Source: Saccoglossus kowalevskii
Taxonomy: Eukaryota > Hemichordata > Enteropneusta > Harrimaniidae
Direction: 5' to 3'
Assembly: GCF_000003605.2 (NCBI RefSeq)
Contig: NW_003116946.1
Coordinates: forward strand, 881,130-933,420
DNA: 52,291 bases
Shown: one piece after another, positions 176 to 49,197 of the stretch
Layout: every line of letters starts with the position of its first letter
Position numbering within the stretch: position 1 is the stretch's first letter
Made by a program: the position numbers and the translations under genes
The notes under the pieces: model-generated
Database searches by the model: none
Told to the model about the DNA's origin: nothing
What the model saw: the letters and a program-made list of their open reading frames with translations, nothing else

Positions 176-1439
176 GACTGCTTTACAATGGCAGAGTCGA
201 ATAGTTTCACTCCCACTGGGAAATCTGCATTTTTGCTTGAATGACAACTAATTAAGCACATTTTCCAGACCGGCGAAAGAGTATGCAACAGCCAATTTTA
301 ACAGCCTGTCACATGATTTTACTTTGAATGTCAACATGAAAAGAGGCTAGTCCATTCTACGCAGGAGTAATTGGGAGTAGAATATGTGAGGGATAGTATC
401 AACAGAGATGTGCATAGTGAAAAATAACATATATCCTTTTTTTGCATCGCTGAGCATTTCTGGTTTAGTATACTGGTTTGAAAATGTTGAACTTGCATGA
501 TTTGCTATGTTTTTTTTTACTGAAACTCCTCTATTGATCGAATCCCGGGTTTGAACATGGTTAGTTAGTACCTGCCATGGTTTGAAGGAGAACGACACAC
601 CACGTGATTCGTTTAAATACAATGGTGAAGGCAAACATGCTGTGCTACTGTGGTACTCCACTGACGGGATGACTTATGTGGACAGCAGTCGTCGCTGAGC
701 TGCACGCTACAACTTCGTTTGTGATTTGCTTGCTAGCCATGGATTAAATTAATCTTGATTACCAGTTAAAATGTTGCTCATTTGGCGTTGGTAATCTTTA
801 TTTGGAACTGGGTAACGTCGCAACGTCACCAGCAGAAACCTCCTGATACTTTGATGTTGATGGTCGCGCCTCAATGGTAATCGCTAATTTTACTGTGGGT
901 GGATCTTCCAAGAGCCCTTCAGGATTTATAAAACTCAGTCAACATACATCAAGTTCTCTCAATCGTAGTATTCCATGTGATGTACACCTAATATGCCAAA
1001 AATGTTGCTGAACGACTTGAACTGGATAAAATTGGCAGACGAAAATGTGTTTACAAAATAAAAATAGTTTGGTTGCCAATGAAAACAAACCGGTAGGCTG
1101 GCTGGCGATTCGCTCCGCTCAAAACAAGCTACTAGTATATGTTATCGGCCTTTGCCGATGTAGGAAACCGGGCACCGTATACGAAGTTCGCAAAAAAACA
1201 TTTAGAAGTCACTTTATTTTATTGCTAGTACGTATTCTGCCATTAAATTTATTATTTCCAACCGTTTTGCGATAGTATTTTCTAGATTGGAGACAGCATT
1301 TACATTTCATTCAATGTTGCATTGAGATTACTTTGATACAGTGTAACAATGTCGGCGCCGGTGATCTCTTATCGGTGTGCAACGTAGCCAAAATAAAAGG
1401 CATGATCATTTGAACATTACAAGACTGGTAGGAGGTAAT
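176..1439. other. Gene-free stretch
   Basis: I see no gene here. Short open frames exist, such as the minus-strand frame at 347-661, but they show no recognisable domain and are within chance for AT-rich DNA. The part next to 175 may be more of the decayed LINE, but I cannot read it. Confidence 0.5.
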
Positions 1440-3636: not shown

Positions 3637-3640
3637 TAAC

Positions 3641-5278: not shown

Positions 5279-5323
5279 GCTACACCATGGAGCTAAAAAA
5301 ATTACTTAGCTCCATGGCTACAC
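5279..5323. mobile_element. Micro-hairpin insertion with 7-bp target duplication (type A)
   Basis: A 31-bp hairpin at 5286-5316 has 11-bp perfect arms, CATGGAGCTAA and TTAGCTCCATG, around a 9-base loop. It is flanked by the exact 7-bp direct repeat GCTACAC at 5279-5285 and 5317-5323. The repeat does not extend by a base on either side. It has the same architecture as 9231-9272, 20160-20201 and 21446-21472 (CA...TG ends, 7-bp repeat) but different interior sequence. Confidence 0.6.
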
Positions 5324-7259
5324 ACAGTATTTCAATTAGAATTATATTTATGGTAGTTCGGTTGTCTTACTGAATCGTTTCTGCACAGACATCCAGGCTT
5401 ACTTTGTTAGTATAATACCAGACGCAATGCTGTCACAAGGCAAACAAACTGAAACTTTCATAACAGTGACGTATGTTTTAACTAAAAAGTAGTCAACGAA
5501 ACTATCCGTGCAAAACACTGTTCGTGTGAGTGGGCAGGGGAAATACATCATTTAATGAATGGATGGGAAAAATTGAGCGGGTTTGGGCGGGGAAAGCATT
5601 ATAATTTAACAGACGGGGATAATCTTGCGCATTTTGGTGGGATATTTTTTAAGCACATGGATAATTGAAATCATGTACACTATTACCGTAATTCCTTGGT
5701 TTTGGTTACAATCTTTCCCTTTGAAATTCAGGTGGTAAATACATTACTTGAATTACTTCTTTATTAAATAAATCTTTCCAAAAACAAAATAACAATATTT
5801 TGCGCCCTTTTCCAAAGATTATATAGCTAGAAAGTTCTTCAAGAATTGGTCAAACTGCAACATCGCACATTATCGCGTTTCAACCACCCTCTATTTCATG
5901 ATACGAAGTCATATACCATATTTTATGAAAAACCGCTGGGAATTAAGGAAAAATATCAACTCTGCGTCTGATATTCACTTTCATATTTGGCCAATCATTT
6001 GGAAGTTGAAATAAAAAAAATGATTGAAAATTGTTTTTCGAAGTAAATTATTAATTATATGGATAAATAAGAAAAAAGAACTTGTTTTTCTTGTTAAATG
6101 TTAGTGTTTGGGTTTCAAATAAAGTCAATACTTTCTAACCCAATAATTTTTCAAGGACAAACAACTTTTACGCCATGTCTTTGACCGCCATTTTTATCGG
6201 AAAAAAATCAAATGCAAATTTATACATGATATCTTGCACTATTTTCTGGTTATTTCACTATATTTTTGGACCAGTATCCTATTGCTTTTAATTTTGATCC
6301 AAGAGTTTGTTAATTTTCATACAGACTTCCTGAGGACTGTACAGGACTTGTTTGTGGATGACTACAGTTAATAGTTGTGATCCATTCAACGGCAACGGCA
6401 CCCACTCAAATGGACCGCTTATGGTTTATTCATAAAATACCGGAAGGGGGCTCTCGTTCCAAACGCTATTTTTTAGACAGGGTCAAATGGTGTTCATGAA
6501 GACTATTGAAATTTTGAAGTTGTACGTTGGGTTAAGTAGTGCTGATATTTGGAGGGGTACAAATTTGACCTACACGTAATACATTGCACAGAAGCTGTTC
6601 CTGGGACGGTACTCCCTGAATGAAGAAGAGAGCTGGTACAACCGAACAGCTTTTGAGAGCATTTTTTTCTCGCAGGAATGCAGTGCCGTTGCTGTTGACG
6701 TTGACGATTTCAAACTAACAAATGCACAGAAAAAGTTTTGCATTTTTCCTTCCAGCGAGTGGGTCGAACAACACCAACAAAAGACAACACGTAGAATTAA
6801 ACAATGAGCACCGTGACTACGACACGGAACGAATGATTAACCGAATACTATGTTCAAGTTTAACCGGTAATTTGCAGGTGGGCGAATTTGTTGTTGATGT
6901 ACATTTGTGGTTGAAACCAGAAGCGTGCAAGATGGTCGAGATTATCCACCCGACTTGTTGAGACAACTATGCTTTGTAATCTGTCTTTATTTACACAAGG
7001 TATGCATTAGACCAGATTTTAAACTTCAAAACAATTATAATATAGATGGATTTAGAAATACTCCGGATGGCGTAATGAAAAGAAAAACTGTCTGACGCAG
7101 CAGATATGAAAACAAGCAGAACCGTATATTAAGTAGAACAAGTCATTGAAAAAGACACAGTCCCTGTTAAATTATTGAAAGTTCTCTTTGTGCTCGTCAT
7201 ATTAAAGCGGAGGGGTTGTCGCGAGCGTGTCCTTGAAACTTGAGTTCCAATTGGCGTAT
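5324..7259. other. Gene-free stretch
   Basis: No domain or exon chain is recognisable. Open frames at 6722-6961 and 6907-7095 overlap in different frames and look accidental. Confidence 0.4.
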
Positions 7260-9230
7260 ACAACAGATTGTTTATTTACATCAAAACACGTGTTTCGTGT
7301 CATAGTAATATGGCCAAAAATAAAAACAGCCGTTATTCGGCCATCTTTGATCCGATTATAAAACACACTGATATGTATGATGTATGTGCCAAATACGAAT
7401 GGAAATGGTACATAAATTGTGGAAATATAGTAGTAAGGCCAAAAAGTCAGATGGCTGTCAATCGGTCATCCTGGACCAGATTTTGAAACAAATTGCCATG
7501 GACATGCATCTTAACATGTATAAAGTACATGTATGTGCCAAATTGAAATGAAAACTGACAGAGCACGTCCAAGATACCGCATAAAAAAAACAAGATGCCT
7601 GCCAGTCGACCATCTTTGATCCAATTGCGAAATAAATCGTCATGGACATGTATTCTAACATGTATAATCTATGTACGAAGTTTGAATGACAACTGACAAA
7701 GCATGTCCAAAATACAACATTTTCAAAAAAACAAGATGGCTGCCAGTCGGCCATTTTGAATCGAATCACTAAACCACTGCATGTGCATATGTTCCACATA
7801 AGGTACTAGGAACATGCAAAGAATGAACGGAATCAGTCCACAGGATTCTGAAATATGACTCTAGACAGACTGACACACGGACAGACGGACGGACGGACGG
7901 ACAGACAGACAGACAGACTTAGGAACTCACGGACGGTCGGAGACATGTATCCTAACACGTATGATCTATGTACTAAATTTGAATGTAAACTGACAAAGCA
8001 TGTCCAAAATACAACATTTTCAAAAAACAAGATGGCTGCCAGTCGGCCATCTTTGATCCAATTGTGAAATAAATCGTCATGGAAATGTATCCTAACATGT
8101 ATAATCTATGTACCAAGTTTGAATGAAAACAGACAAAGCATGTCCAAAATACAACATTTTCAAAAAACAAGATGGCTGCCAGTCGGCCATCTTTGATCCA
8201 ATTGTAAAATAAATCGTCATGGACATGTATCCTAACATGTATAATCTATGTACTAAGTTTGAATGAAAACTGACAAAGCATGTCCAAAATACAACATTTT
8301 CAAAAAACAAGATGGCTGCCAGTCGGTCACTTTGAATCAAATCGCTAAACCACTGCATGTGCATATGTCCCACATAAGGTACTAGACACATGCAAAGAAT
8401 AAACAGAATCGGTCCCCAGGATTCTGAAATATGACTCTAGACAGACTGACACACGGACGGACGGACGGACGGACAGACAGAGAGACTCAGGAACTCACAG
8501 ATGGTCGGAGACATGTATCCTAACATGTATGATCTATGTACTAAATTTGAATGTAAACTGACAAAGCATGTCCAAAATACAACATTTTCAAAAAACAAGA
8601 TGGCTGCCAGTCGGCCATCTTTGATCCAATTGTGAAATAAATCATCATGGACATGTATCCTAACATGTATAATCTATGTACCAAGTGTGAATGAAAACTG
8701 ACAAAAGCATGTCCAAAATACAACATTTTCAAAAAACAAGATTTCTGCCAGTCGGCCATCTTTGATCCAATTGCGAAATATATCATCATGGACATGTATC
8801 CTAACATGTATAATCTATGTACCAAGTGTGAATGAAAACTGACAAAAGCATGTCCAAAATACAACATTTTCAAAAAACAAGATGGCTGCCAGTCGGCCAT
8901 CTTTGATCCAATTGTGAAGTAAATCATCATGGACATGTATCCTAACATGTATAATCTATGTACCAAGTGTGAATGAAAACTAACAAAGCATGTCCAAAAT
9001 ACAACATTTTCAAAAAACAAGATGGCTGCCAGTCGGCCATCTTTGATCCAATTGTGAAATAAATCATCATGGACATGTATCCTAACATGTATAATCTATG
9101 TACCAAGTTTGAATGAAAACTGACGAAGCATGTCTAAAATACAACATTTTCAAGAAACAAGATGGCTGCCAGTCGGCCATTTTGAATCGAATCGCTAAAC
9201 CACTGCATGTGCATATGTCCCACATAAAGT

Positions 9231-9272
9231 ACTAGGCCACAGTCCCTCTATCTAGAGGGACTGTGACTAGGC
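9231..9272. mobile_element. 28-bp palindromic micro-insertion with 7-bp target duplication (type B)
   Basis: A perfect palindromic insert at 9238-9265 has left arm CACAGTCCCTCTA, spacer TC, and a right arm that is the exact reverse complement. It is flanked by ACTAGGC at 9231-9237 and 9266-9272. Two sister copies of the surrounding satellite module (near 7801 and 8378) lack it and read straight through from GTACTAG to ACATGCAAAG, giving built-in empty sites. A diverged copy of the same 28-mer is at 20167-20194. Confidence 0.75.
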
Positions 9273-9402
9273 ACATGCAAAGAATGAACAGAATCGGTCG
9301 AAGGGATTCTGAGATATGACTCCGGACGGACGCACGGACGCACAGACGCACGGACGCACGGACGCACAGACTCACGGACGCACGGACGGAGACCGAATTA
9401 TA

Positions 9403-9436
9403 AGTCCCCGTTTTCGGACTTCGTCCGAACGGGGAC
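9403..9436. other. Terminal hairpin of the satellite module
   Basis: AGTCCCCGTT and AACGGGGACT form the outer arms, and TCGGAC/GTCCGA the inner arms, around TTC. This gives a strong stem with two unpaired bases on the left side. It lies exactly at the right end of the array, after the GCACGGAC tract. Confidence 0.7.
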
Positions 9437-11970
9437 TAATAATGAATTAAAGGCCGGACAATTGTTGGACGAGAAAAGTGGACATATTTTTTCTGATTAC
9501 ACTGGAATGTGTGTTTGGAACCCACAGTCATATTAAACGTTTTGAGGTTGAATGAGGTTGTATCAGCTTGCAGCCTTGTATTTGAGATATTCTAACCTAC
9601 ACATAAGATGGCAAGTGTATTTCTTGAATAGTTGTAAAAAGAACAACATGGGGAGGGGGGGTGGCTGTAATAAGTAAAATCGTCTGGGTAGGCTTTATAT
9701 CAATCCAGTCTTACGACATACCATCCAATGACCGCTGGATCATTAAAATTCATCATTGGGTCTCCTGCTTTTTCAGCCTCTCGGCTGAGATAGTTCCGCT
9801 GTTAGCAAGGCACATTTCAATTAGAGAACTGAAGATATCACAAAATGGCATGAGGTACATATATGTATAATATCAGAACCGTCAAACTTAGAGAATTAAA
9901 GATATCATTATGAAATGAACAAATCTAAGTGAGGTCTACCGAGGTACATATACACCAAGTATCAAAGCAATCAGGCTTGTTGTAGTTTTCAAGAAGTCGA
10001 AAAAGTAAAATGTTGACACGGACGACGTCGAACACCGGACGAAGCTGAACGACAAAGTCAAAATCGGAGATAATAAACATTGTTGAGATGTAGCTACAAG
10101 GAGCTTCTGTATGTGACGCTGAACAGGGATGTTTTTATTCAAGGTGATTTTCACTTTCTTTCTTTGGTTTCAATAAAGCTTCCCCAATTAACTATTTTGA
10201 TTGGATGAATAGCTATTTATTACCAATTTTGTCAATAAGGAATATTGATACCCAAGGACGGCAAAATAAATATATAAGACATTAAAAATACCCTAAAGTA
10301 GTTGCCTGTGAGTGCATAATTTAAAATTTTGGCACATAATTGTGAATTGAAACTGACAAAATTTGTATATTTTCTATTATTTGAAAATTTGACCTCAGGC
10401 AACCAATTAGTCCTAAATGTTTTATGTATTAGCTGTTTTCACTTTATTTTTGTATATTATACATATTAATATATTTTGACTGATTATTTTTCATGAAATA
10501 CATCTCAAATAATATTCTTATTTACACTAATAAGCTGCAATATTTTGTATTAGATATATTGGGGCTGATGAACATTTTTGCGACGCATTACCCAGAAATC
10601 TAGAAAATTATATTTTTTACTATTTATTATTATTTTCTATTATTTAGAATAACATTGTCGAATTAAATCCACTTGGATATATCCGATTAAACTCAATGTT
10701 TACGATTTAAATCCAATTCAATATTGCGTCATTTACCAATATGTAGAAACCCAATTCAAATCGTCATTATTAGCACAAATGTAATTGCCAATTCATAATT
10801 CCATTTTTGAAATCAAAAAACGATTTCCTCTCCTCAAAATATCGTTTCTGCGAGTACTTTCGTGTTTCATCTATATCTATTATATGTAAAATATAAGACA
10901 TTAAAAGTAAAATGTTGACACGGACGACGTCGAACACCGGACGAAGCTGAACAAACTTCTACGATCCCCCTCTATAAATCAATATAATATGAATTCCACA
11001 ATGATCCATCTCAACTTTACATATCATACACAAACTATTCAAGCAATATAACTTCAAGCTAAATTAGATAAGTATATAATAACTTTTCTGTGAGACTGTG
11101 GCATCTGCTTTTGATGGTTCATGAATCAGTGATTTTGCAATTTTACCAAGCATCTCAGATGATTTTTTGCTTTTAAGCCATTAAATCTATTCTCACATTT
11201 TTAACAAGAAGTGGAGATTACTAACTTCTACTTGCTCACAGAAAATTAATCTTTGGATTTTCAGGGTCATGCATTTACTGCTCACACCTGTCACTCTTCT
11301 TTACTAGTTTGGAATTGTTAAATTTCACGTGACACTCAAAATTGTTTCAATGTTTCCAAAATGAATTTCAACGGGAAGACGATTGATGGCTCAGAACTGC
11401 TCGACATTTGTCAGATATGCATCATTAGTATTATTCGGATGTTATCACACTAGCTGTAACCGATGCCCTAAACAATTCACAAGTATTCGTTATTCAATTT
11501 TTAAGTAGTTTTGAACATTTTAAACTAACATTGTTTGGTATTACATGTTCAGCGAAATAGTGTGATTTATTGTATTGGCTATATATGTGATAACTGGCTG
11601 AACCGAAAGTAAACGTAAATGAAGGCATGTTTGTTTTTTTAATTATTTCTACAAACAATACACTGGTAAATATCATACTATAATGTTTTTATCAATATAT
11701 GTTATTTAATTACCGTTATTTAAAAAATGCTCAACACGAATAGAAATCAGGCTGGGTGCTTACAAAGGCAGTAGATAATACAATTTTTCAGCTAAATGAA
11801 TATTAGCTAATAATAAGGAATTTCTGTTATCATCTGAACAAATCTAATACGGGTTCACCCGGGGCACCTACATTTCAAAGCAGGGGTTAGAGTTTTCACG
11901 AAAAAGTTGATAATAGAATTTTTACCAAAACTTTAACAACGTTCACTAAAAATGAACAAATCTGATGGAG
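9437..11970. other. Gene-free stretch with a 45-bp direct repeat pair
   Basis: No gene is supported. About 45 identical bases containing GACACGGACGACGTCG occur at about 10008-10052 and again at about 10909-10953. A shared ATAAGACATTAAAA motif lies near 10276 and 10893. This suggests the edges or internal duplication of an unnamed AT-rich element. Confidence 0.5.
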
Positions 11971-11974
11971 GTTC

Positions 11975-12637
11975 TATCAGGGGGAAATTATCTTTCTCTC
12001 GGGTTCTCCACACTTGTCAGGGGGGGGAACTCGTCTCGTCTCTATTTCTCGTCTCCTTGAGGTACGGGATCGGGAAAGTCACTTTAACTTTACAGTCAAA
12101 TAAGACACACACAACGAAATACGTTTCAGCTCTCGTCTTAGTCGGTCAATCGAGCACTCTATAAGACACAGCGCCCTGGGAAAAAGTCCCCAAGACTCTC
12201 ACAAGGCTGACACAAGGCTAGCCCAAGACTGGACTGCCTCAAGGCTCGCCCCTGGACTCTCTCGGACTGCGTCTGTCGTGGAGTATTCGCCAAGACCAAC
12301 TCAAACTCTCTTTATTCATTTTCAAAACTCTAACCAATTACAAAGCAGTAAAAAGACTCTAAGGCGTAACCTTCAATCATAAAGCCAATCACACTAAGTA
12401 CTGAATACGTCATATCTTTTGATTAATCGTTCACTACATTAATAACTACGGATACCAACTGTCAGAATGAGTAGTCTAAAAAGCGGCGGCTATCTGGTAA
12501 TTAGTTCCAAATCACTGAGCCAAGTTCCGTCCAAAATTTCACAAATAGGCCTACACGATGACAGACATAACACAGCAATTCGCTAATAATCAGTTAATTA
12601 AGTCGGTTAACAGATACGCAAAAACAAATTCATGACA
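11975..12637 (-). mobile_element. Solo-LTR-like element, copy 2
   Basis: A 663-bp copy of the same family as 2988-3636, same orientation. It is flanked by the 4-bp direct repeat GTTC (11971-11974 and 12638-12641). AATAAA is present on the minus strand at 12311-12316. The open frame 11952-12164 lies inside it and is an artefact. Confidence 0.72.
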
Positions 12638-12641
12638 GTTC

Positions 12642-13247
12642 ACTCAAGGATACATACCAAGTAATCAAAAATGTAGTAACACGCTTGGCAGTAAATTGAG
12701 GTTGCACATTGATATAGTGCTAGCATGTCTCAATACATAAATATATGTTTCTTATATGCCTAGGTACCGGTCTAACGAACAGTTGGTGAACAATAACAAT
12801 ACGATAAATGCGAATGAAAACGATTAATAATATAAATACAATTCTAACGATTTTCATTTAAATTATCGAGAAGTAAGTTTCAATCCTAGTTTGTGTTGCC
12901 CGATAGCACAGCATACACATAATATAAGCTAATATAAAATAGAATGTTCTATTTGGCATGTACAACATTTAACATTGAGTACATTAAGAAAAAGACAATC
13001 ACAACAAACGAAAATACAAAACAAACTAGCCGAAAATAATTCAAAGGTTTAAGAATTTAAATAAAATATACATACAAGAAGTCTCTAGTGAATAAGAGTG
13101 AATAAAGAATCTTTTGGCTTGTCTTTACATATCTGGCATTTAATGAACTAAGTAGCAGCAGTAATAGCCCTGAGTGTACCGTACTGAATATATGGGTGGT
13201 GCACGACACATGTGTATTTATAGGACTTGCATCAACAACGCCAGGAG
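12642..13247. other. AT-rich gene-free stretch downstream of the zinc-finger gene
   Basis: Nothing coding is seen. It lies 3' of the zinc-finger gene on the minus strand and may include distal 3' UTR if the poly(A) signal at 13248-13253 is skipped. Confidence 0.4.
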
Positions 13248-13253
13248 TTTTAT
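13248..13253 (-). terminator. Poly(A) signal AATAAA of the zinc-finger gene
   Basis: AATAAA on the minus strand, about 93 bases downstream of the stop codon of the zinc-finger CDS. It is the first canonical hexamer I find there. Confidence 0.5.
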
Positions 13254-13345
13254 TTTAATTTGTTAGTTCATATCTTGACTAGTGGTACAAATCAACGATC
13301 GTTAACAAAACTAATTTTGCGTTATTCATTTTTATAAACGGACTT

Positions 13346-15316
13346 CTATACTTTAAACTTGAGTCTAAATGAGTCAAATGCAGAGGTCTCAAATGAAATT
13401 AGATGCAAACTTGTTTGGTCAGAACATGTCTCATATTCATAGGGCCGTTCCTCTAACAAGCTCAAATCTACACATTTGTGTGAAAGGCCCTTGCCACAAT
13501 CATCAGGTTTCAATACTTTTACCCCTACACAGACGTCAGTATATTTACTTGAGTTGAGTTTAAGAAAACTTTCGGCAGGTGGACTTGCTGATGTTGATGG
13601 GTCTTCTAGTTTTCTTTTGGGCTGCTCCATTGTCAGATTAGTGTTGTTAACTCTATATACATATGAATTATGTGTGTCCATCTTTTCATGATTCAGAAGG
13701 TGCTGATTTAGGTTCCGTTCACTTCTGAAGCATTCACCACATATTGCACATTTGTAAGGTTTATGAGCATGAGAAAACATGTGACTTTTATAAACTTTAT
13801 GCGAATAAAAATGTGTTTGACATTTGACACAAGTATACGTGTGTTGCATTTTAGTTACCTTTATACTGCTGTTTACCTTCTCTGGGGTCAAACCCCTCCT
13901 ATGATTACATTGGTTACTTTTCTTAAAATGATGTTTTTCACAATGAATATTCACGAGTGCCTGTTTTGCAAATGTTCTTACACAATGTTCACAAGGATAC
14001 TTGCTTGTCTTACTGTGTGTTTTCATGTGACGATTTATATCATGTTTCCGCTGAAAGCGTTTACAACAGACACCACATTTGTATTGAACTACATTAGAAT
14101 GTTTTCTCATATGACTATTGATGGCATGACTTCCGCCAAACAGTTGTCCACATACTTTACACGAGTATTTCCTGTGCAACATGTCAGCATGCTTTGTACC
14201 AGAATATTTCTTATGCAAGTCTGTATAGCACTTTAAGTCAGCTTGTTTTGATTTGATACGTTTTGGGGGTTTAACCACCACAACAATTTTCTTATCAGAT
14301 ATCTTCTTATCAGGTTTGCTATAGTTCTGTTGCACGTTATTCCAATCAGCAATATTCACTTCTGATATATCATCAAGACACTGAATATGTTCGCGTTTGT
14401 GGTTTTCAAACTCATCAAGTCTTCCAAATATTTCTCCACATACTTCACACAGTCGTTCAAACGACACAATATTGCACAATGGGCTGTCAGCTCTGGAAAA
14501 AGTTATTTCTCTGGATTGCGTACATGGTGTCCTTTCGCATTTTAAAGGACTCTCCGTGGCAGTTTGTTCAATCTCTTCACCAACCTTTGAATCATTCGAG
14601 TGTAGCTTCATGTGGTGCTTGAATTTAATATTATCCTCCAGGTTTTCACCACATATGTCACACATCACAGAGTCTAAATCTTCGTCTTTGAAACAATCCC
14701 CAACTATCTTATCTCCACATGTCTGTAGTACTTCCCTTTCATGCATTTTCATATGTTTCGTCACATCAGATTGTCTGATAAAACTTTTCCCACATCGATC
14801 ACAAAGGAAAGTTATCTCCCTTCTGTGTGACCGCATGTGAATTTTGAGTTCTACTCTCCGAGCAAAACAGCTGTGACAATATGAACAGGTATACATGTGT
14901 GAGGTGCTGGTGCTTACTGTATTTTGAGAGCGATTATGTTGTTTCATACACTGCTTTCTGTGTATCGTCAGCTGACCCACTTTTGTGAAACATTTTTCAC
15001 AGCTCTGACACCTATATGACTGTTTATGTATGTCCTCGTGTAATACGAAATCTGACTTGCTTGTAAAGCAGTTGGCACATATACTACATTGATACATGTT
15101 CCCGGGATGAACATTCTTCACATGGTGTTTTAACTTTTTTATATCTGAAAACTGTTCACAACACTTGTCACATTGGAATGAACTTTTAGCAGAATGAACA
15201 CACACATGGAAATACAGTTGACTGTATGTAGCATATATACTGTGACAAATGCTGCATTTATGAACGGATAAACTTGATGGATTCTTAGTTGTTTTCACAT
15301 TCTCTGCAGTTGCCAT
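13346..15316 (-). CDS. C2H2 zinc-finger protein, 13 fingers, 656 aa, single coding exon
   Basis: Probable nuclear sequence-specific DNA-binding protein. Thirteen C2H2 fingers lie at about residues 21-41, 49-70, 77-97, 103-123 (last ligand Cys instead of His), 144-164, 172-192, 219-239, 290-310, 386-406, 414-434, 442-462, 496-516 and 523-543. They come in small groups separated by acidic or basic spacers. The canonical TGEKP linker is essentially absent, unlike KRAB-type polydactyl proteins, and I see no KRAB, BTB or ZAD domain at the N-terminus. Basic clusters at 349-357 (KPPKRIKSK) and 566-571 could be nuclear-localisation signals. Residues 544-656 carry no finger. The start Met is the first in the frame and lies 20 bases downstream of a possible 3' splice site, suggesting a 5'-UTR intron. 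Ortholog identity is unknown. Confidence 0.93.
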   Translation of the reverse strand: MATAENVKTTKNPSSLSVHKCSICHSIYATYSQLYFHVCVHSAKSSFQCDKCCEQFSDIKKLKHHVKNVHPGNMYQCSICANCFTSKSDFVLHEDIHKQSYRCQSCEKCFTKVGQLTIHRKQCMKQHNRSQNTVSTSTSHMYTCSYCHSCFARRVELKIHMRSHRREITFLCDRCGKSFIRQSDVTKHMKMHEREVLQTCGDKIVGDCFKDEDLDSVMCDICGENLEDNIKFKHHMKLHSNDSKVGEEIEQTATESPLKCERTPCTQSREITFSRADSPLCNIVSFERLCEVCGEIFGRLDEFENHKREHIQCLDDISEVNIADWNNVQQNYSKPDKKISDKKIVVVVKPPKRIKSKQADLKCYTDLHKKYSGTKHADMLHRKYSCKVCGQLFGGSHAINSHMRKHSNVVQYKCGVCCKRFQRKHDINRHMKTHSKTSKYPCEHCVRTFAKQALVNIHCEKHHFKKSNQCNHRRGLTPEKVNSSIKVTKMQHTYTCVKCQTHFYSHKVYKSHMFSHAHKPYKCAICGECFRSERNLNQHLLNHEKMDTHNSYVYRVNNTNLTMEQPKRKLEDPSTSASPPAESFLKLNSSKYTDVCVGVKVLKPDDCGKGLSHKCVDLSLLEERPYEYETCSDQTSLHLISFETSAFDSFRLKFKV

Positions 15317-15336
15317 TTATCAATGTTTTTTTCTCT

Positions 15337-15358
15337 TCTGAAATAGATTGGTAAAAAA
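15337..15358 (-). promoter_or_regulatory. Putative 3' splice site of a 5'-UTR intron (zinc-finger gene)
   Basis: Read on the minus strand, a pyrimidine-rich tract ends in CTATTTCAG about 20 bases before the ATG at 15316. This would place the coding exon start near 15337, with a leader exon farther upstream (higher coordinates). I cannot identify the donor. Confidence 0.35.
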
Positions 15359-16019
15359 AATACAGATAACACTTCTAATGATTCAGAAGCAAAACAACAT
15401 GTGAGTTTCAATGTGTCATGTTTCAATGAATTTTGGCAATTGAAAAATGTGTTCCAGCATAACAATGAATAGTGGCAACCAGCCAACCATCGTTTAATCA
15501 CATTCAACAAAATGATAATCACGTGAAAGTTGTTATGCCATATTTATGGGCATGTTTCTATGGCACATGTTGAGTTGACACATGGGGCTAAAAAGCACAG
15601 TTATGTGGCACAAACTGTGCTATCGAAACAAATGAATCCAGAACTTACTTCATGATCGTTTATGGTCCTTCAATGTAATGTAATGTAATGTAGTTCAATG
15701 TTCAACAATTTGTAATGGTAATCGAATGTCAATATTGCTACTTTGTTAGCAAAACGGTGGGTTATATTGCAATACTGATGGTTGGGTTGCTTTTTCGTTC
15801 ACAGTAAAGAGCAAGTCAGTTAGAGTTTACAGCGGAAATATCGGGTTCGTTCTGTGCGAGCTCAACCCCGGGATGTATTGCAGCCGTACTCAGCTCGAAC
15901 TGAACGCGTTTACACGGCGATTGTTGCCGCTCCAAACGTTTGGCTCCGATATAATGTTGCCGTATAAACGAGGAAGTATCAAGATTAACGTCTCAATTCG
16001 AATACATGGTAGTAATTGA
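15359..16019. other. Gene-free stretch upstream of the zinc-finger gene
   Basis: Probably holds the 5' UTR intron and promoter of the zinc-finger gene. A short (AATGT)n tract lies at about 15674-15693. No TATA box stands out. Confidence 0.35.
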
Positions 16020-16027
16020 TTACATTA

Positions 16028-16207
16028 CGCGGCAAAACTTTATTATTTGATGGCCAAACACTATTACTTCACGGCAAACACTATTACTTCATGGCAAAAC
16101 TCAATTATTTGACGGCAAAACTATATTATTTTACGGCAAAACACTATTACTTCACAGCAAAACACTATTACTTCACAGCAAAACTCCGTAATTTGACGGC
16201 AAAATTC
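16028..16207. repeat. Minisatellite, 21-22-bp unit
   Basis: About eight copies of a unit like ACGGCAAAACACTATTACTTC. The period is mostly 21 bp, a multiple of three, which explains the open frame across it (16016-16252). The repeat would encode an alternating LxxLTAK-like peptide, but there is no sign of a real gene. Confidence 0.85.
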
Positions 16208-16563
16208 TCACGTCTCGCAAATGAAACTCTCCATTTTCCACGGCGGAAGTAGCCATGATATCCTATAATTCTCCCTTTTTTCAATCAAACTTCAGAAAGC
16301 TAATAAATGTATTAGTTGTCTGAGATCAAGGGCAAGACTGGTCACGGTTTAGTTAGACTGTGATCACCACCGCTGTCTGCTGAAAATTCGTATACATAGC
16401 AATGCAGCGTTTCGTGTCAATCTATCCAACACATCCGTCTGGGGATGCTATCGAAGTACCGACTGAGAGAGATGGGAGCATTTTATTGATTCCGCGATGA
16501 ATTAAATATATGTTGTCACTTGTGGGCCACCGCAATTTTAATATAAACGTATAAAAACGGTTA

Positions 16564-16611
16564 TAGTCACAGCGGTTGAGAGTACAATCGAGACTAGTCT
16601 GAGTTCAAGTC
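16564..16611 (+). repeat. tRNA-like sequence, possible SINE head
   Basis: TAGTCACAGCGG at 16564-16575 resembles a Pol III A box with one extra base. GTTCAAGTC at 16603-16611 fits the B-box consensus GWTCRANNC. The intervening bases do not fold into a functional cloverleaf that I can see, so a decayed tRNA-derived SINE is likelier than a tRNA gene. Weak evidence. Confidence 0.28.
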
Positions 16612-19600
16612 ATCGATGGCCCAATACTATGGGTTGCTGAACAAATACTTATTCACTTAACCTGACCGAGAAGAGTGGCAAAAACAGTTGACCCTGCAGA
16701 CAATTAACTCGCTTGTGTTGAGCTACGCACCCAACGCCCTTTCGAATAGAGCCTCTGTCATAAGAGGGAGTATGGTCATATGCAGTTCGTATCGTTTTAA
16801 CCCATAGATGACCTCTTCGTATGATATAGTAGTACTAGTAATTTGTTGTGGAGTGAAAGTATACAAAAACAGTAAGTTTAGTAGCATATACAATGCATTA
16901 AATACTCACCTAATTCCTGAAATGGAAAGTTGTCTTATGAATAAGTAGGTTTAGAGGATAACGGAGTGCGTACAGTGCGTACACTATACTCAAAATGGAG
17001 AACTGTTTTGGAATACACTCTCAACGCTGGTGGCGCCCTCACTTGCGCAGCCACAGAGCATACTTTGATATCAAAGATGTTTGGAAAGTGTTATGGTTAA
17101 TGGATGTTCTGACTAAATTTGTTAATTCGTTCAATTTTGCATATTGTTAGTTGTTGGTACTTTTATCTTATCTCCGTGAACATCCAGTTCGAGACATAGG
17201 ACACTGAAATGCACGGCAATCTGTAGTAAATACGTCGTTCAAACTCTGAATAAACCATAGCTAGAAGTGAAAACATAATTGTATAGGTAATAGGTAAATT
17301 GTTTCGTCTTTTCTTGCGGCGTACACTGTAACAGCCATAAATGACACGGATGTCAATCTGGTAAGTCTCATTACAGAATCTTAAACACATAGTACAGTAA
17401 ACAACTCCCCCCTCCCGGACAAAAGTGCGCACATACAAACCCTTCCAGAAAAAATACCGTTGTACATTTAGCAATTTCTCTGGGTGGGGTTTCGTCAGGG
17501 AGGGGAACGTTTGTACTAAACTAGTTAACATCACTATGACCCAATGTATATTTTAGTAACATCGCACTGAATTCTTTTTCTTTTTCCAGCTGTCCTCATG
17601 AATTTAATTAAAAGTCAGTTCGTTGAAATTCAACAGATCTAACACCCAAATACGCGGATTTGGTTGAAAGCGTATAGATTATGCCACACATTGGTGAAAA
17701 GTGATTAGAAACGCTTTTAAAATACTGGGAAATGTTGTTGATTACGCACACTTCTAGTAAACAAGAAACAAAACAATATCGTTTTACAATATTAAAACTA
17801 ACATTTTGCTTTGATATTTGAACACTGGGTGGCGCTGTTTCTATTGAGTCCGCGGAGCATTATGTCACCAGTCATAGAATTTATTCAATACAACTTCAAA
17901 ATACAACGACAAGGCCTGTATTTGGAAGTTGTGATTTGCATATTCGTGTATTCAACATTATGTATGACAGCTCTAGATAATTTAATAGAACCATACATGC
18001 TCATGGGTTGTTAGTTGATTCATCGCACGTTTGATTACTTCGTATATATAAGTAGATGTTTGTTATACTGTTCTCAGCGGTATTTGTGCTGCAGAACATT
18101 GTACGACGTCAAGTGTTACAACATAGTATACATTGCATACACTGATTTGTATGGTAATTACTTGATTCAATTTCAACGATGGTGCTGTTTGCGAAAAAGT
18201 ATTAAATGACGGTGGTCGCCGCGGCACAACGCGTGTTCGAATTTCACGTAAACTAACAATGTATTTTACACGTGTTGTGTAAGTCGCTATGAGTCCCATA
18301 TCGAACAGGACGCGACGCAACGACCACCGCCCTTTAACCGTAACAAGTTCTCCGAATAAAAAATCACAAAAAAAACAACAACACAAAAACATATTTCATT
18401 TTGAAATTTGGAAGAACATAGTACTTCTGTAAGGTTTTCATATTTGTTGATCAGTAACTTAAGGTTGTTCCTTATTATGTGATCTCACTATGTCACTTGT
18501 GTTTTGCCAAGAAGTGTGTCATTTCAAATCAACTAACGTGTGGGTATAATAATTACAACTGGCAGGTCAACTGAGCTATAAGGTTGTTGGAAATACTCTT
18601 TTCTACATTTACGCTTGAGTGACCTCTATGGCCAATTCAACGAATGACTTCTTTTATTATCATACCTTACAGATTTGAATAAATCTGTGAGCTATACTTG
18701 CTTCAGTCGTGATGATTCTTTTTTTTTACTATAAACTAGGAACCACTTTGCTTCAATACATCTGTCCCGTAATGGCAAAATGGCTCGTGGTGTCAAGGTC
18801 ACTCACCACTGTTTCGAAAGTATGTCACCAATAACGAGAAACTGACATGTTTACCAAATTATTGTAAACCATCATAATCAACCCAGCTGGAGCCAGTCTA
18901 CCAGTGAGCATACAAAAGTCGATACAAGGCGTTTTGGAAATATTTAGTGACCACATTCATCGATAAAATAAACTCTAGAAATATATTTTTTATACGTGTA
19001 TTATTTGCGTCTAATAAATTGAGACTGGTATCGAAATCAAATTTAGAAACCTCATAATATTATGCTTGCTTTGGTGATTAGGCACCACGACCTTCAGTGA
19101 GTGCATGCATGCTTCAATGCTGCAAAATTTCAGAATGTGTTGCCATGCCAACTAATTGTTCATGGTAATCCCAAGAATTAGTGGAATGTGATAAGTAATA
19201 ATACAAAGTGTGTGCGCAACTTCAAGCTATTGGTAGACGATATATAATTAAAACTAATAACTTAGTCGAGTTATCTGTTCTTTCCAGACAGATTGTTTGT
19301 CGCCGATATAATCTCTTGGTTGGTTATCGTTGAAGCATAATCACAGTCATCTGTAACTGTAGCGTGATACCGTATCGTGACGTTCTGTGACTGTGTAGTT
19401 GGTTGTAGGGCCTGGGGGACGGGTCTCCGCTTGCATTTTTTTAATCATAGAATTACACACTTTGTGGTGATTTCGTCCTAATTAAATACATAAAAAAGAA
19501 GTTACTTAACATTGAAGAATTTCGCGTTAACAACACAGTGTCACTACCATTGCTATTCACAATAAATCACCCGTCTGGGACACGTTTAACTTGTTTAGTA

Positions 19601-19880
19601 CGGCTGAACTTACACACAAATGCACGACGTTATGGATAGAAAGTCAAGTATCAGAAAATAACTTGACCGTACTTTACATTGGTTTACTATCAGGAACATC
19701 TTTATCTTATGATACACTAAGCACGCATGACTCAAAACACCAGCCCCCCCCCCCAATACGAACTTGTCCTGTTTTTATGTAATTTTGTGTGACTCCGTAA
19801 ATTTAATAACAAAGAGTGTTATAATCGTCGTAAGTTGTCACGCTGTCTGGACTGGGTTATGATTATAAATGATCGAGAGA
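16612..19880. other. Gene-free stretch
   Basis: No gene is supported. The 123-codon minus-strand frame at 17163-17534 has no recognisable domain. Two tRNA-like GGTGGTCG...GTTCGA stretches face each other at about 18213-18235 and 18287-18332, possibly the ends of an inverted-repeat element. Confidence 0.35.
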
Positions 19881-19921
19881 GTCACGGTGACTAGATAAGA
19901 ACCATTTGACGTCACCGTGAC
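19881..19921. promoter_or_regulatory. Nested palindrome containing a CRE site
   Basis: GTCACGGTGAC (19881-19891) and GTCACCGTGAC (19911-19921) are reverse complements, and each is itself almost palindromic. The cAMP-response-element core TGACGTCA sits at 19907-19914, on the inner edge of the right arm. No gene starts are evident nearby, so function is unproven. Confidence 0.4.
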
Positions 19922-20159
19922 GAAAGGCCAATATTACATAAGTAACTTTACATGTGGTGATTCTATGACATGCAAAGTGCAGTTATTGACAACTGTGATT
20001 GTAACTACTATCAAGTTACCGGTGTCTCGGAGTTTATACCCACCATCGATAGTGTTATTATCATCAGTCCCAAATATCAAATATCTTTATTTTCATGTAC
20101 GACTCCTCTTTTTTATATTGAGCAATGCATCAACAATATTTTAAATAGCACAATACTTG

Positions 20160-20201
20160 ACTACAGCACAGTTCCTCGGGATAGAGTGACTGTGACTACA
20201 G
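20160..20201. mobile_element. 28-bp palindromic micro-insertion, diverged copy (type B)
   Basis: A 28-bp insert at 20167-20194 begins CACAGTTCCTC and ends GAGTGACTGTG. It matches the 28-mer at 9238-9265 at 22 of 28 positions and is flanked by ACTACAG at 20160-20166 and 20195-20201. Its palindrome is decayed in the centre, as expected for an older copy. Confidence 0.7.
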
Positions 20202-21445
20202 GTACTCCAATACATTTACCACATTTTCAATGTGTACGATATTGACACGCTGGACATTACATTATATGCCTTGCGTGCAAATGCACTGAATACGTCAAGG
20301 GCTCATATCTGGCGTGGTTATCACGTGGTCGCGTCCACTCGTTGCGTATCAAGTTCAGATGACGCCGATGAGTTGTCTTATCTCCATTTGAGTTTACACT
20401 GTATTGCTTTTGAAAAATTTATATCGCGTCACCTCGACAATCACGCGGATAAGTATAGATTAGAATATGGTCCACCCTTTATACAGAGTTACAAAACTTA
20501 ACATATTCATGTTCAGACAGACAGACAGTGCTGCCAGATTGCCCTATATCCAGCTCAATACGAGGAGAGAGTCTCGACCTCCAGGATCGGAAGACTGTTT
20601 CGCAGGCGTCGGTCGTTGACATTCGAATATTTAGGGCAATGGCCGGTGTTCGCGAAGTTTAACTTACTCAGTACATACACACATGTGTTATTACAAATAC
20701 AGGGCATTGGAATCCGAGAAATAAAGACATTTGGAATTGACTACAAATATCCACTCGGGACACCCGAGCATTCTGCGTCCGGCATATACTGCAATCCATG
20801 CACGGGCAAGCGAAGCTTTACGTCAAAGCTGAAGCTTCGTTATGCTAAGGCGAGTTGGTACACCAATGGTCAGACCATGATGCTACCAGTTGCCATTCTG
20901 TAGCTATATGTGCAACGGGAAACTCTGTGGCTGTATACATGTTAGTATAATGCTATATTTCGTGTTGGCTTTCTTTAATCATAGTTTGGTTGCCAATATT
21001 AGTGGAATACTAGTATGCGGTAGGATTATTCTACAAGATCTCAACCCATCCCATTTATGTTAGCAAGTTCCAGGTATGGCCTGTAGTTTGGCAGCACGAC
21101 TCGTATCATGCGTGGTAGCACGACTCGTATCATCATGTACGACAGCTATGACGTCACGGTTCGATGTCCAGTATCTGACACGTGTACATGTGCGTACTGT
21201 ACTGTGCTGACTTCAAGTCACCTTTGTCCCGCTATTGACACGTGGATCTTTCCCCACTACTAAGTGAAGGGTCACAGTGAAGACATGTATTTCTGTGTCA
21301 TATATCGTATGATGTTATTACGAATTTGAATTACTTAGTGAGACAAGTACATATATTATCCTTTGACGATCGTATTTACAGTGCAAGTATTATTTAAACC
21401 AAGTTCAGTTTCCGTCGTGGTACTGTTTGTCTATCGTAATTTTAT
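20202..21445. other. Gene-free stretch
   Basis: Somewhat more GC-rich than its surroundings (20500-20900) but without a recognisable domain. A 25-bp tandem duplication built on AGCACGACTCGTATCAT lies at about 21091-21136. A CRE core TGACGTCA is at 21149-21156. Confidence 0.35.
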
Positions 21446-21472
21446 GCCTAACCAGAGGGACTGTGGCCTAAC
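21446..21472. mobile_element. Internally deleted micro-insertion (13 bp) with 7-bp target duplication
   Basis: CAGAGGGACTGTG at 21453-21465 equals the right end of the 28-bp palindrome plus its terminal CA. It is flanked by GCCTAAC on both sides (21446-21452, 21466-21472); the repeat can also be read as 8 bp, GCCTAACC. It looks like a 28-bp copy that lost its left and central 15 bp while keeping the CA...TG ends. Confidence 0.55.
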
Positions 21473-21473
21473 C

Positions 21474-23510
21474 TAGATTATGTGTGCCACTGAGTGTCTC
21501 ACCTCTCAGACACATCTCTGCCAATCCAACTCCGGTACTCACTTATATTAAACACTTAATCGGGTAGTATGCCTTGTATATAATATTTAGTACAAATTAA
21601 CCTAAACTATTAACGGGGAAACTGTAGTGATATGTTAAAGACTACTTAAAGGTGAATGTCGGATCACAAATTAATGGTTGATTGGGGTTGCCTGACCACG
21701 TCTCACTATCTAGTAAAAAGTATATCACGAAACACAACCCGGAAACACAATAGCGCCCTCCCACGTAATCCCTAGAACTACTAGTATGTCATAAAAGTAG
21801 AATCATCCATACATTGATTTACAAGTTTCTGTGTTGCCGCTCTATAAGCGTTGACAAGCACTCAGAAGTACATTCTAGCATGAACCAAATACTGGGAGGC
21901 GAACATAAGTGCGCAGATAAAATTAATTCTACCTATTTCTTATAATAATTTACGATTGGCCAAATTGTGAGGTGTTGGAACATGAATGTGGACATATTAC
22001 GTTAATCAGACGGTTAATTAAAGTTGCTTTTCCACTTTGTTTTATATGCAAAACACCACTCACTGATTATGATGTCCACCATGTAAATGATATAAAGGGT
22101 TGGTTTGGCCACAAATTATGGAATATTTCTCTGACGTTAGCCTGTCTAGTCCCGAAACCAAATACTCATCTGATTGTTGTAATCACTCAAGACTACTTGC
22201 ATTTATTCTTCAAGATTGGTTCAAAGATACTGTTTGAATAAGATTTCCCACGAACTTTATGCAATCCCAAACCCGTATAAATGATGCCCACAGGGGTCAG
22301 TGAAAGGTATTTTACAGATCATACAAAATATGAATGCAACCTCAGATTATGTTTATTGTGTTTCAAATCAGCTCGAGACCTGAAAAACCAGACTGAACGA
22401 CAACTGATTATCTGCCCCTTCTGCCATTCGCCAGGGACACGAGGAACCAGCCAAGACCCAAGGTGTGACGTGTGGCTTACGAACGTTCATACATTATTCT
22501 CTTTGTTGTATTTTATATCGGTGGTGGCGCTCATTTGATACGCATTTAAAAAAAAAAAAACTGCCATGCGGGAAACAAATTTCCAAATCTTCAATTCGAC
22601 CCTAATCTCATTTAGTAGTAGCTCGATTTATGATTGAATAAATATTGCCTCACACGTTGGTGGGTGGCCGCATAGTATTTAATGTTCATTCCGTATACAA
22701 TATGGTTATTCAGTTAAGAAGAATTATTTTGTTTCAATTATTCTTTTCTGATTTTTGTCGTTGTTGAAAATGCTCAACTTACTTAATAATATGCTGGCCC
22801 GTGTACGAATTCAACTTGAATTTAGTTAGTACGTACGCCGATAGTACCACATATTGCCTTCGATTGGTCAACCACCTCACAACGCACGGTCATTTTCAAA
22901 AGTTGTTTTATCTGAAAATGTACAATATGAACAAATAATTTCTGACAACTGAACTATTAAATGTTTGACTTTCGTAAATACGAACAATTTTATCGGAAAC
23001 TACGTTGTGCGAGGTAATGTTACTGATCAGAGTGAAAAGGCGCACGTGATACACTAAAACTGCATGAAAACATATTCTGTGTATGTATATAGTTGGGGAA
23101 GAATTTCACTCAAAATGATTTCCTAGCATCTCTGGTTGTCATGTTTTCTGTTCACAACTCTTTTTGGCTTGAATGGGTTCGTTTTGCCAAGCCTATATCC
23201 ACAGAACACAGAGCCCCTAGCCAGTCTATAAAGTAAGTAATTTATTTTGTAATCTAATACCTTGACAACTCAGAGAATACTATACTTTTCCAACGCAAAT
23301 CATGCACATTTAAAACTAATTAACCAAACATCTCATTCAGATTCAGGGCATAAAAACGTCTTATTGAACCTATTAACGTAACCGGGTGACTCACATTACT
23401 GTTTAACCGAACTCGTAGTTCGAACGTATTCGAATATTCAAATGAGTGACGACCAGTTCAAAGCGCGTTACTTATTGCGTATAGCGCAAAGACCTATGGG
23501 AAGGAGATTG
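21474..23510. other. Gene-free stretch
   Basis: Open frames at 21972-22241 and 22281-22538 have some Cys pairs but no known fold and do not connect by convincing splice sites. I call no gene. Confidence 0.35.
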
Positions 23511-23833
23511 GTTACGACCGTGACGCTGTGTGACGACCGAGACGCTGTGTTACGACCGTGGCGCTGTGTGACGGCCATGGCGCTGTATGACGGCCATGGC
23601 GCTGTGTGGCGACCATGGCGCTGTATGGCGACCTTGGCGCTGTGTGGCGGCCATGGCGCTGTGTTACCATAAAGACGCTGTGTGGCGACTGTGACGCTGT
23701 GTGGCGACCGTGGCGCTGTGTGGCGACCATGGCGCTGTGTGACGGCCATGGCGCTGTGTTACCATCGAGGCGATGTGTGGCGACTGTGACGCCGTGTAAC
23801 GACCGTGGCGCTGTGTGACGATTGAGGCGTCTT
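23511..23833. repeat. GC-rich minisatellite, 19-bp unit
   Basis: About 17 units like GCGCTGTGTGGCGACCATG. The units vary at the TGTG/TGAC/CATG positions and show a five-unit (95 bp) supra-period, marked by GTTACCAT at 23663 and 23758. Because 19 is not a multiple of three, the array stays open in several frames on both strands, producing overlapping frames of 70-94 codons. They should not be read as genes. Confidence 0.92.
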
Positions 23834-24403: not shown

Positions 24404-24515
24404 TGGATCACCGAGTTCAAAACGTCACCATCGATACGTCGCAATTGGTCCGACAGAAGACACAATTCCGTCATTTCAACGAGTTAGAAGAATATCGTAT
24501 CGACCATCATCAAAA

Positions 24516-48038: not shown

Positions 48039-49197
48039 TGTGATAAATTTGTTTGAACGTATCTGTTGATCGACTTATTTAGCTGATTACTGGCGAATGG
48101 CTGTGCTATATCTGTCATCATTTAGGCTCATGCGAGGTTCTGGACGGAACTCGACTCAGTGATTTGGAACTAATTACGATATAACCGTCGCTATCCGGAC
48201 TACTATTTCTGACAGTTAGTATTCGCAGTTACTAATATAGTGAACGATTAATCAAAAGATATGACGTGTTCAGTACTTAGTGTGATTGGCTTTATGATTG
48301 AAGGTTACGCCCTAGAGTCTTTTTACTGCTTTGTAATTGGTTAAGGTTTTGAAAAAAATTGTTTTAGTTGGTCTTGGCGAGAAATCAGGAGAGACGCAGT
48401 CCTGGGCCAGTCTTGAGACGCAATCTAGAGAGAGTCTTGGGTCAGCCTTGGGATAGTCTTGGGGACTTTTCCCCAGGGCGCTGTGTCTTATAGGTTGCTC
48501 GACTGACCGACTAAAGACGAGAGTTGAAACGTATGTTGTTGTGTGCGTCTATTTGACTGTAAAAGTTTTAAGGTAGAAGCCTAGTCATAATTTCTGACAA
48601 AATTGGTCACAAATCGCATAACAATGTTCATTAGTTTATTATGTACAATCATGAAGCTAATGTTCTATGGTACAACTAAATAGCATTATTTTGTGTGTTA
48701 CAGTTAAGCTTTTTGAGAAACGTGTCCTAATATTTCTTGAAAATTGCTATTTTTAGAACAATTCCATAGAATACAATGTTAAAGAAAAATTGCATTTTTG
48801 ACACTTTTTAAAACCCAGATTTTTTAAATAATTCAGAACAACAAAATGCACTCCATCATTAAAAATATATGATTTTTTTCAGCCTATGTCACCAGGCTAG
48901 ATTTTGAGATATTGCATAATATCTCTGCCATAGGAACCTGTGGTAAAAGTGTTATAATAGTGTCAAAATGGCGACTTTCCACTAAAATACAACCATCAAT
49001 TTCTCGAAAAAAAGGCTGGTGACCCCCAACTTTTTTAAGGTCAATATCCTTATATTGCCGTGGAGTACAATTTATTGCAAAATGAATAAATTCTGGGTTT
49101 TTTAATTTATGAGGGAACGCGATAGAGAGACAAGACGAGATTCCCCCCCCCCCGGCACGTGTGGAGAACCCCGAGGCTGAAGAATTTCCCCCTCATA
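48039..49197 (+). mobile_element. Solo-LTR-like element, copy 4, with internal insertion
   Basis: Same family as 27977-28630. It is flanked by the 4-bp repeat GAAC (48035-48038 and 49198-49201). LTR sequence is interrupted between about 48568 and 49107 by roughly 540 bp of unrelated AT-rich DNA, which replaces about 40 bp of the LTR. The usual AATAAA is lost in this copy. Confidence 0.72.
48568..49107. mobile_element. Unidentified insert within LTR copy 4
   Basis: Begins near AAGGTAGAAGCC and ends near TTTAATTTATGAGGG. It contains TGGTGACCCCCAAC and has no coding frame of note. No clear terminal repeats or target duplication, so an insertion-deletion or gene-conversion patch is possible. Confidence 0.4.

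What the first reader, a model, noticed from the sequence alone, without database searches (positions are those of the whole stretch)
5279..21472. A class of micro-insertions: 13-31-bp hairpin-derived inserts with CA...TG ends and exact 7-bp direct repeats
Seen: four inserts with identical architecture at 5279-5323, 9231-9272, 20160-20201 and 21446-21472. Flanking repeats are GCTACAC, ACTAGGC, ACTACAG and GCCTAAC. The first three inserts are 31, 28 and 28 bp hairpins or near-hairpins; the fourth is a 13-bp shortened form. Known: ordinary cut-and-paste transposons have ends separated by hundreds of bases, and 7-bp target duplications are uncommon (hAT 8, Transib 5, piggyBac TTAA, Tc1 TA). Inference: these are elements reduced to little more than their two terminal repeats, or transposition by-products in which two ends were joined and reinserted. 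A separate templated-hairpin mechanism is also possible. I know of no described family like this.
Basis: partly seen in the sequence, partly recalled or inferred. Interest (0 to 1): 0.85.

Follow-up and report, generated by a model that had tools for sequence, protein, structure and literature searches.

The report
P-element excision footprints with 7-bp repeats
The tiny hairpin inserts are best read as scars left where P-element-type jumping genes were cut out and the break was sealed by end joining; such scars are known from fruit-fly experiments, and here one animal genome carries many of them as a natural record of DNA repair.

Summary
All four inserts are present with exact 7-bp repeats, well above shuffled sequence, and there is a fifth at 556-579. 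They are best explained as excision footprints of P-superfamily transposons, not as micro-transposons.

In the same 572-Mb genome the outer ends of family A bound longer elements with exact 7-bp duplications (191, 616, 1014 and 1329 bp read). Pattern searches found two-armed palindromes at 178 sites for family A, 43 for B and 43 for C. Where flanks were read, 34/47, 34/40 and 15/19 have an exact 7-bp duplication. Arms stop after about 17-18 nt, matching the 17-nt 3' tails of P transposase; Drosophila P excision junctions look the same (PMC2895639). Longer inserts often carry filler copied from the arms. Two paralogous empty sites lie in the window. P-type transposase genes exist in the genome. 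One such locus carries an end whose outer 18 nt equal the arm of a family-B footprint subtype, but its other side reads N, so no complete autonomous element was seen.

Known kind, new and rich example; 7-bp duplications are also known in this superfamily (Galileo).

The parts
5279..5323 (.). Footprint of family B: 7-bp duplication GCTACAC, 31-bp insert 5286-5316 (outer ends CATGGAGCTAA), second GCTACAC
   Evidence: 43 family-B palindromes in the genome, control 0
9231..9272 (.). Footprint of family A: ACTAGGC, 28-bp insert 9238-9265 (15-nt + 13-nt arms), ACTAGGC; lies in a ~140-bp tandem array
   Evidence: empty paralogous sites
20160..20201 (.). Older footprint of family A with mutated arms: ACTACAG, 28-bp insert 20167-20194, ACTACAG
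21446..21472 (.). Trimmed footprint of family A: GCCTAAC, 13-bp insert 21453-21465 (CA + 11 nt of the other arm), GCCTAAC
549..586 (.).
   Evidence: 43 two-armed family-C palindromes in the genome, control 0
48643..48676 (.). Possible old footprint of family B: GTACAAT, 20-bp insert 48650-48669, GTACAAC (one mismatch)
   Evidence: weak: that loose scan gave 19 rows in the window, many inside a tandem array, and 4 in the reversed window
7732..7882 (+). Paralogous array copy without the insert: one target-like 7-mer ACTAGGA (empty site for the 9238-9265 insert); limits are those of the alignment
   Evidence: alignment
8308..8476 (+). Second paralogous array copy without the insert: one target-like 7-mer ACTAGAC; limits are those of the alignment
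   Evidence: alignment

Best explanation
Each insert is the scar left at the donor site when a P-superfamily DNA transposon was excised. The transposon had inserted with a 7-bp target duplication. Its transposase then cut each end with a long stagger, 17-18 nt inside on one strand and at the boundary on the other, leaving both duplication copies and two 3' tails of terminal-repeat sequence. Because the two tails have the same sequence, joining them tail to tail gives a near-palindrome of up to about 34-36 bp beginning CA and ending TG; short matches between the tails help to align them. Trimming gives shorter or one-armed forms such as the 13-bp insert. Copying from the tails before joining gives longer forms with filler. 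At least three transposon families (A, B, C) did this in this genome. Shown here: structures, counts, duplications, longer elements with family-A ends, arm limit, copied filler, empty paralogous sites for one insert, P-type transposase genes in the genome. Inferred: the cut chemistry, the repair pathway (Pol theta-like end joining), and that those transposases acted on these ends.
For: Longer family-A elements with exact 7-bp duplications: 191, 616 and 1014 bp and 1329 bp; one search finds 242 long-form ends (30-nt pattern, up to 2 mismatches), control 0. Two-armed palindromes: A 139 + 41 with 2 sites in both, B 43, C 43, control 0 each. Exact 7-bp duplication: A 34/47 read, 8 more with one mismatch, two more exact if the compound insert is taken whole; B 34/40, 1 more with one mismatch; C 15/19, 3 more with one mismatch; permuted flanks give means of 1.0-1.3 sites and maxima of 5-6 at <=1 mismatch. 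Arm limit: of 182 family-A ends 124 keep nt 1-15, and 0 of 182 show the YGG usual at nt 18-20 of longer elements. Sixteen family-B ends of one subtype match the outer end of a transposase locus for 16 nt (6), 17 (1), 18 (8) or 19 (1). Drosophila P excision: 17-nt 3' tails, junctions of the form duplication-tail-tail-duplication with microhomology or templated insertions (PMC2895639, passages; PMC7776569, passages). Filler: 28 of 47 centres of >=5 nt contain a >=5-nt run of an arm, shuffled mean 6.4, maximum 13. Empty sites. Transposase: 13 TNP-like RNase H matches, 0 of 14 control genomes; the only solved-structure match is P transposase 6p5a, at weak E-values 0.0074 and 0.0048.
Against: No complete autonomous element was read. 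Six transposase loci with 1.5-kb flanks had no A or B end within 2 mismatches; of three looked at further out, none had an A end and neither of the two tested had a C end. At the one locus with a family-B end the far side reads N. No long family-C element, and no complete long family-B element, was read. Family C is dominated by one identical 32-mer (25 of 43, counted by eye), which a self-mobile palindrome would also give; a CG overlap of two 17-nt tails explains it, but that is inference. The arm limit looks like 17 nt in A and 18 nt in B, not one number; two A ends have GG at nt 19-20 after a purine, read as filler, and one has YG at 18-19. Three of 47 A sites (after counting the two compound ones as duplicated), five of 40 B and one of 19 C lack a 7-bp repeat within one mismatch. 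The weak PDB E-values would not stand alone.
Confidence: 0.93

Rival explanations
1. The palindromes are themselves mobile: minimal elements of two joined ends that transpose as 28-36-bp units.
For: Most sites read have their own 7-bp duplication, and some sequences recur: one 33-mer at 8 of 50 listed A sites, one 32-mer at 25 of 43 C sites (counted by eye).
Against: 24 distinct forms among 50 listed A sites; unequal arms and one-armed forms such as the 13-bp insert, which keeps only CA of one end; arm-copied filler; P transposase needs internal sites (only the title of Kaufman 1989 seen, in a reference list); most longer-element ends read carry a subterminal CTATTGT beyond the reach of the footprint arms (8 of 10 family-A ends).
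Confidence: 0.03
2. Same footprint logic, but a different transposase superfamily cut the ends (for example a RAG/Transib-like, hAT-like or undescribed DDE transposase).
For: No complete autonomous element with these ends was read; family A starts CACAG, which loosely recalls RAG signal heptamers (recalled, no call).
Against: 7-bp rather than 5-bp (Transib) or 8-bp (hAT) duplications (those sizes recalled and as in the finding); 17-18-nt arms match the stagger described as unusual for P elements (PMC7776569, passages); a P-type transposase locus carries an end identical for 18 nt to a B footprint arm subtype.
Confidence: 0.05
3. The inserts are internally deleted non-autonomous elements that shrank by slippage or aborted gap repair, rather than excision scars.
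For: P elements do make defective copies by aborted gap repair (passage in PMC4168063).
Against: Deletion endpoints would be expected to scatter along the element; instead none of 182 family-A footprint ends shows the usual nt 18-20 of longer elements.
Confidence: 0.02
4. Chance palindromes or assembly artefact.
For: None found.
Against: Shuffles, zero reversed-pattern controls, permuted flanks, empty paralogous copies.
Confidence: 0.005

Closest known systems
Drosophila P-element excision footprints (P{wa} repair junctions, PMC2895639 Table 1, passages)
   Same: Direct repeats of the target flanking CA...TG near-palindromes made of up to 17 nt of each end; microhomology joins, small insertions and templated insertions. 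A 32-bp product (2-nt overlap of the two tails) was recovered 5 times and a 30-bp one 14 times there; a 32-bp form is the commonest in family C here.
   Different: There an 8-bp duplication, one engineered locus, laboratory flies; here 7 bp, at least three families, many sites in one assembly, arm limit near 18 nt in family B.
Galileo (P superfamily, Drosophila; PMC4168063 and PMC3573991, passages)
   Same: P superfamily with 7-bp target duplications (three 8-bp cases reported) and a target preference. Here 34 exact family-A duplications favour T at 2-3 and A at 5-6 (both orientations were summed, so the symmetry is by construction).
   Different: Long terminal repeats of about 300 bp to 1.2 kb; the word footprint does not occur in the main text of PMC4168063.
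Zebrafish Pdre2/THAP9 elements (PMC10983969, passages)
   Same: P-like elements outside insects, CA...TG ends, short terminal repeats of 13 bp, internally deleted copies.
   Different: 8-bp duplications; end sequence CATACCTGTCAAC is unlike families A, B and C.

Membership tests
P-element excision footprint | Two copies of the target duplication retained around the joined ends | tested here: met
   A 34/47 exact (36/47 with compound inserts), B 34/40, C 15/19; 5 sites exact in the window
P-element excision footprint | Arms limited to the single-stranded tail length (17 nt in Drosophila) | tested here: met
   0 of 182 A ends show YGG at nt 18-20 (two have GG at 19-20 after a purine); 16 B subtype ends stop at 16-19, mode 18
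P-element excision footprint | Templated insertions or microhomology at the join | tested here: met
   28 of 47 centres of >=5 nt hold a >=5-nt run of an arm, shuffled mean 6.4; use of microhomology was not tested statistically
P-element excision footprint | A longer donor-type element with the same ends | tested here: met
   Family A only: non-autonomous elements with exact 7-bp duplications, 191-1329 bp
P superfamily of DNA transposons | CA...TG ends and 7-8-bp target duplication | tested here: met
P superfamily of DNA transposons | P-type transposase inside an element with these ends | tested here: inconclusive
   P-type transposase genes present; one locus has a matching family-B end on one side, other side reads N; none found for A or C
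P superfamily of DNA transposons | Subterminal transposase-binding sites at unequal distance from the two ends | tested here: inconclusive
   CTATTGT at +39 in 5 of 5 left ends and +31 in 3 of 5 right ends of family A, +41 in the B end; binding not testable here
hAT superfamily | 8-bp target duplication (recalled) | tested here: not met
   0 of 47, 0 of 40, 0 of 19 sites exact at 8 bp

The most novel reading that the evidence does not exclude
This genome keeps a dense natural archive of germline double-strand breaks with known position, known end structure and readable repair products. Family-A footprints appear to outnumber recognisable long elements several-fold, so excision followed by Pol theta-like end joining must have been frequent, and P-type transposases outside insects may cut with a 17- or 18-nt stagger depending on family.
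Probability: 0.55. Interest if true: 0.6.

Novelty: new member of a known kind. Interest (0 to 1): 0.45.

Why it matters
To my knowledge (recalled) P-element excision scars have mostly been studied at one engineered locus at a time. If the reading holds, simple pattern searches recover a few hundred such scars from one animal genome. That would give a comparative record of how germline breaks with long 3' tails are repaired outside Drosophila and an estimate of transposase cut positions from scars alone. It is also a caution that CA...TG palindromes with 7-bp repeats are scars, not a new class of micro-element.

Tried and rejected
Micro-transposon reading: rejected for unequal arms, varied centres and filler. 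Chance: rejected by shuffles and reversed-pattern controls. Ends at P-type transposase loci: six loci with 1.5-kb flanks gave no A or B end within 2 mismatches. Further out, C1630 gave no A end and only a 3-mismatch B match (C not tested there), C2039 gave nothing within 2 mismatches, C4066 gave one family-B end with one mismatch to the 15-mer used. A general search for inverted CA...TG ends with a 7- or 8-bp duplication around those loci gave only poor candidates. A short coding frame in the 616-bp family-A copy was followed: 11 matches in the genome, four loci cut out; three are bounded at both ends and non-autonomous in size, one has no second end in the stretch read. Rfam (gathering threshold) and tRNA scans of the window were empty. 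Paper searches for earlier reports of natural genome-wide P excision footprints listed none that is plainly this from title and start of abstract; five papers were opened, as passages only, and most subscription journals are not in the library. A query on the 17-nt stagger found nothing. I thought of a limpet-like mollusc as host from memory and looked up one name; no call supports it and no species is claimed.
Full report
Observation. A scan of the 52,291-base window for CA...TG inserts of 12-40 bp with an exact 7-bp direct repeat returned 5 hits: the four and a new one at 556-579. Two hundred dinucleotide shuffles gave a mean of 0.71 and a maximum of 3; with inverted ends required the window has 4 (the 13-bp insert drops out) and shuffles a mean of 0.025, maximum 1. 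A looser scan against the three end sequences returned 19 rows: the five sites, rows inside a tandem array at about 23.6-23.8 kb, and three others, of which 48650-48669 is a possible old footprint. The reversed window gave 4 rows, so that scan is weak evidence.

Empty sites. The 9238-9265 insert lies in a tandem array of about 140-bp units. Two paralogous copies in the same window align straight across the position with no insert and a single target-like 7-mer, ACTAGGA or ACTAGAC, where the filled site has ACTAGGC twice. For this site that shows an insertion-type event with target duplication. No such test was made for the other sites.

Counts in the genome. The window lies in a 572-Mb assembly of 4,830 contigs. 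Family A, outer end CACAGTCCCTCTATC: 139 palindromes with both 13-nt arms exact and a centre of 0-8 nt, and 41 with a centre of 9-39 nt; two sites are in both lists, so 178 sites. Family B, CATGGAGCTAA: 43. Family C, CATGGNAGGTACTA: 43. The reversed-pattern control is 0 in all four searches. The 13-mer of family A occurs 1,393 times (715 + 678; control 2), while a 30-nt long-element end with up to 2 mismatches occurs 242 times. So most exact 13-mers are not in long elements that this pattern recognises. Among the first 30 places (25 distinct sites, taken as listed), 12 have a second duplication copy within 70 bp by rule, 2 are long elements (1,014 and 494 bp) and 11 are unassigned; two of the unassigned, L044 and L048, look like footprints by eye. 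The several-fold excess of footprints is a rough estimate, and old long elements may have decayed beyond the pattern.

Duplications. Of the 50 family-A places listed (of 139), 47 were fetched and read (one of the other three is the window's own site): 34 have an exact 7-bp repeat, 8 one mismatch, 5 more. Two of those five (L016, L069) are compound inserts whose outer flanks repeat exactly (CGCCAAT, ATTTCAC). Exact repeats in a register of 6 or 8 bp: none. Permuting right flanks among sites gives a mean of 1.3, maximum 6, at one mismatch or fewer. Family B: 40 of 43 read, 34 exact, 1 with one mismatch, 5 with more. Family C: 19 of 43 read in that call, 15 exact, 3 with one mismatch, 1 with four. 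At one place the order is ATATAAC - A footprint - ATATAAC - C footprint - ATATAAC, so the same 7-bp target was used twice (L147). At another, a family-C palindrome with duplication GATAGAG sits inside a family-A footprint whose own outer flanks do not match (L054).

Longer elements. Family-A ends and exact 7-bp duplications bound elements of 191 bp (GCAAAAC), 616 bp (GATACAT), 1,014 bp (ACCATAC) and 1,329 bp (ATTAGCC). A 471-bp copy has an imperfect duplication. No transposase was recognised in those read. In five elements a subterminal CTATTGT lies at +39 in 5 of 5 left ends and +31 in 3 of 5 right ends; it is at +41 in a family-B end. This recalls the unequal spacing of transposase sites in Drosophila P (PMC7776569, passages).

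Where the arms stop. The 91 listed family-A inserts (50 of 139, 41 of 41; two sites twice) give 182 ends. Of these, 124 keep nt 1-15. None shows the YGG usual in long elements at nt 18-20. Thirty-one have the C usual at nt 17; of these 15 have a pyrimidine at 18 and one has YG at 18-19. Two ends have GG at 19-20 after a purine, which I read as filler. In family B, 16 ends of the AAAATAA subtype match the end of a transposase-bearing locus for 16 (6 ends), 17 (1), 18 (8) or 19 nt (1). The reading is a cut about 17 nt in for A and 18 nt in for B. Published work gives 17-nt 3' tails for Drosophila P and calls the stagger unusual (PMC7776569, passages; PMC10983969, passages).

Repair signature. 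Forty-seven of the 91 inserts have 5 or more nt between the recognisable arms (a share raised by taking all but only 50 places); 28 of these contain a run of at least 5 nt identical to an arm, against a shuffled mean of 6.4 and maximum of 13. Drosophila P excision junctions show duplication, tail, microhomology or templated insertion, tail, duplication, with polymerase theta involved (PMC2895639, abstract and passages with Table 1). That polymerase theta did it here is inference.

Transposase. The Pfam family TNP-like RNase H N-terminal domain has 13 matches in the genome and none in 14 control genomes; three open frames were confirmed with Pfam. The only solved-structure match for the two searched is Drosophila P transposase 6p5a, weakly, E 0.0074 and 0.0048. 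One locus has, beyond its last recognisable coding frame, an end whose outer 18 nt equal the arm of the AAAATAA subtype of family-B footprints. The other side of that locus reads N, so an intact element is not shown. No family-A end was found at the loci examined, nor a family-C end at the two tested.

Comparison and verdict. What it works like: P-element excision and end joining, with high confidence. Membership: the footprint criteria tested are met. Membership of the donor elements in the P superfamily is met on ends and duplication, and inconclusive on a transposase inside an element with these ends. A 7-bp duplication is not a bar, since Galileo has it (PMC4168063, passages; PMC3573991, passages). 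The class is therefore known; the scale, the three families and the natural setting are the new part. I saw no report of such a natural set in the listings, which cover open-licence papers only.

Noticed in passing
50181-51600 (end approximate): Tandem array with a 29-bp period (34 overlapping 300-nt register copies).
   Followed up: no
23473-23871: Tandem array of a 19-bp unit.
   Followed up: no
7315-9284: Array of about 140-bp units that holds the 9238-9265 footprint.
   Followed up: partly
2988-3640, 12020-12640, 27975-28630, 48037-48563: Four dispersed copies of a roughly 600-bp repeat in both orientations, about 80-98% alike in pieces; not identified.
   Followed up: no
24402-24932, 30004-30447, 32252-32677, 38280-38846, 40488-40964, 43664-44152: Two sets of related single-frame genes; of the three scanned one (38280-38846) matches the lipocalin/fatty-acid-binding family.
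   Followed up: partly
13346-15316: 656-aa C2H2 zinc-finger frame on the minus strand.
   Followed up: no
L147 (136 bases): Two footprints of different families share the same 7-bp target, giving three copies of ATATAAC.
   Followed up: yes
L098-L100: Family-A copies carrying a conserved short coding frame that includes MWKAY; origin unknown.
   Followed up: partly
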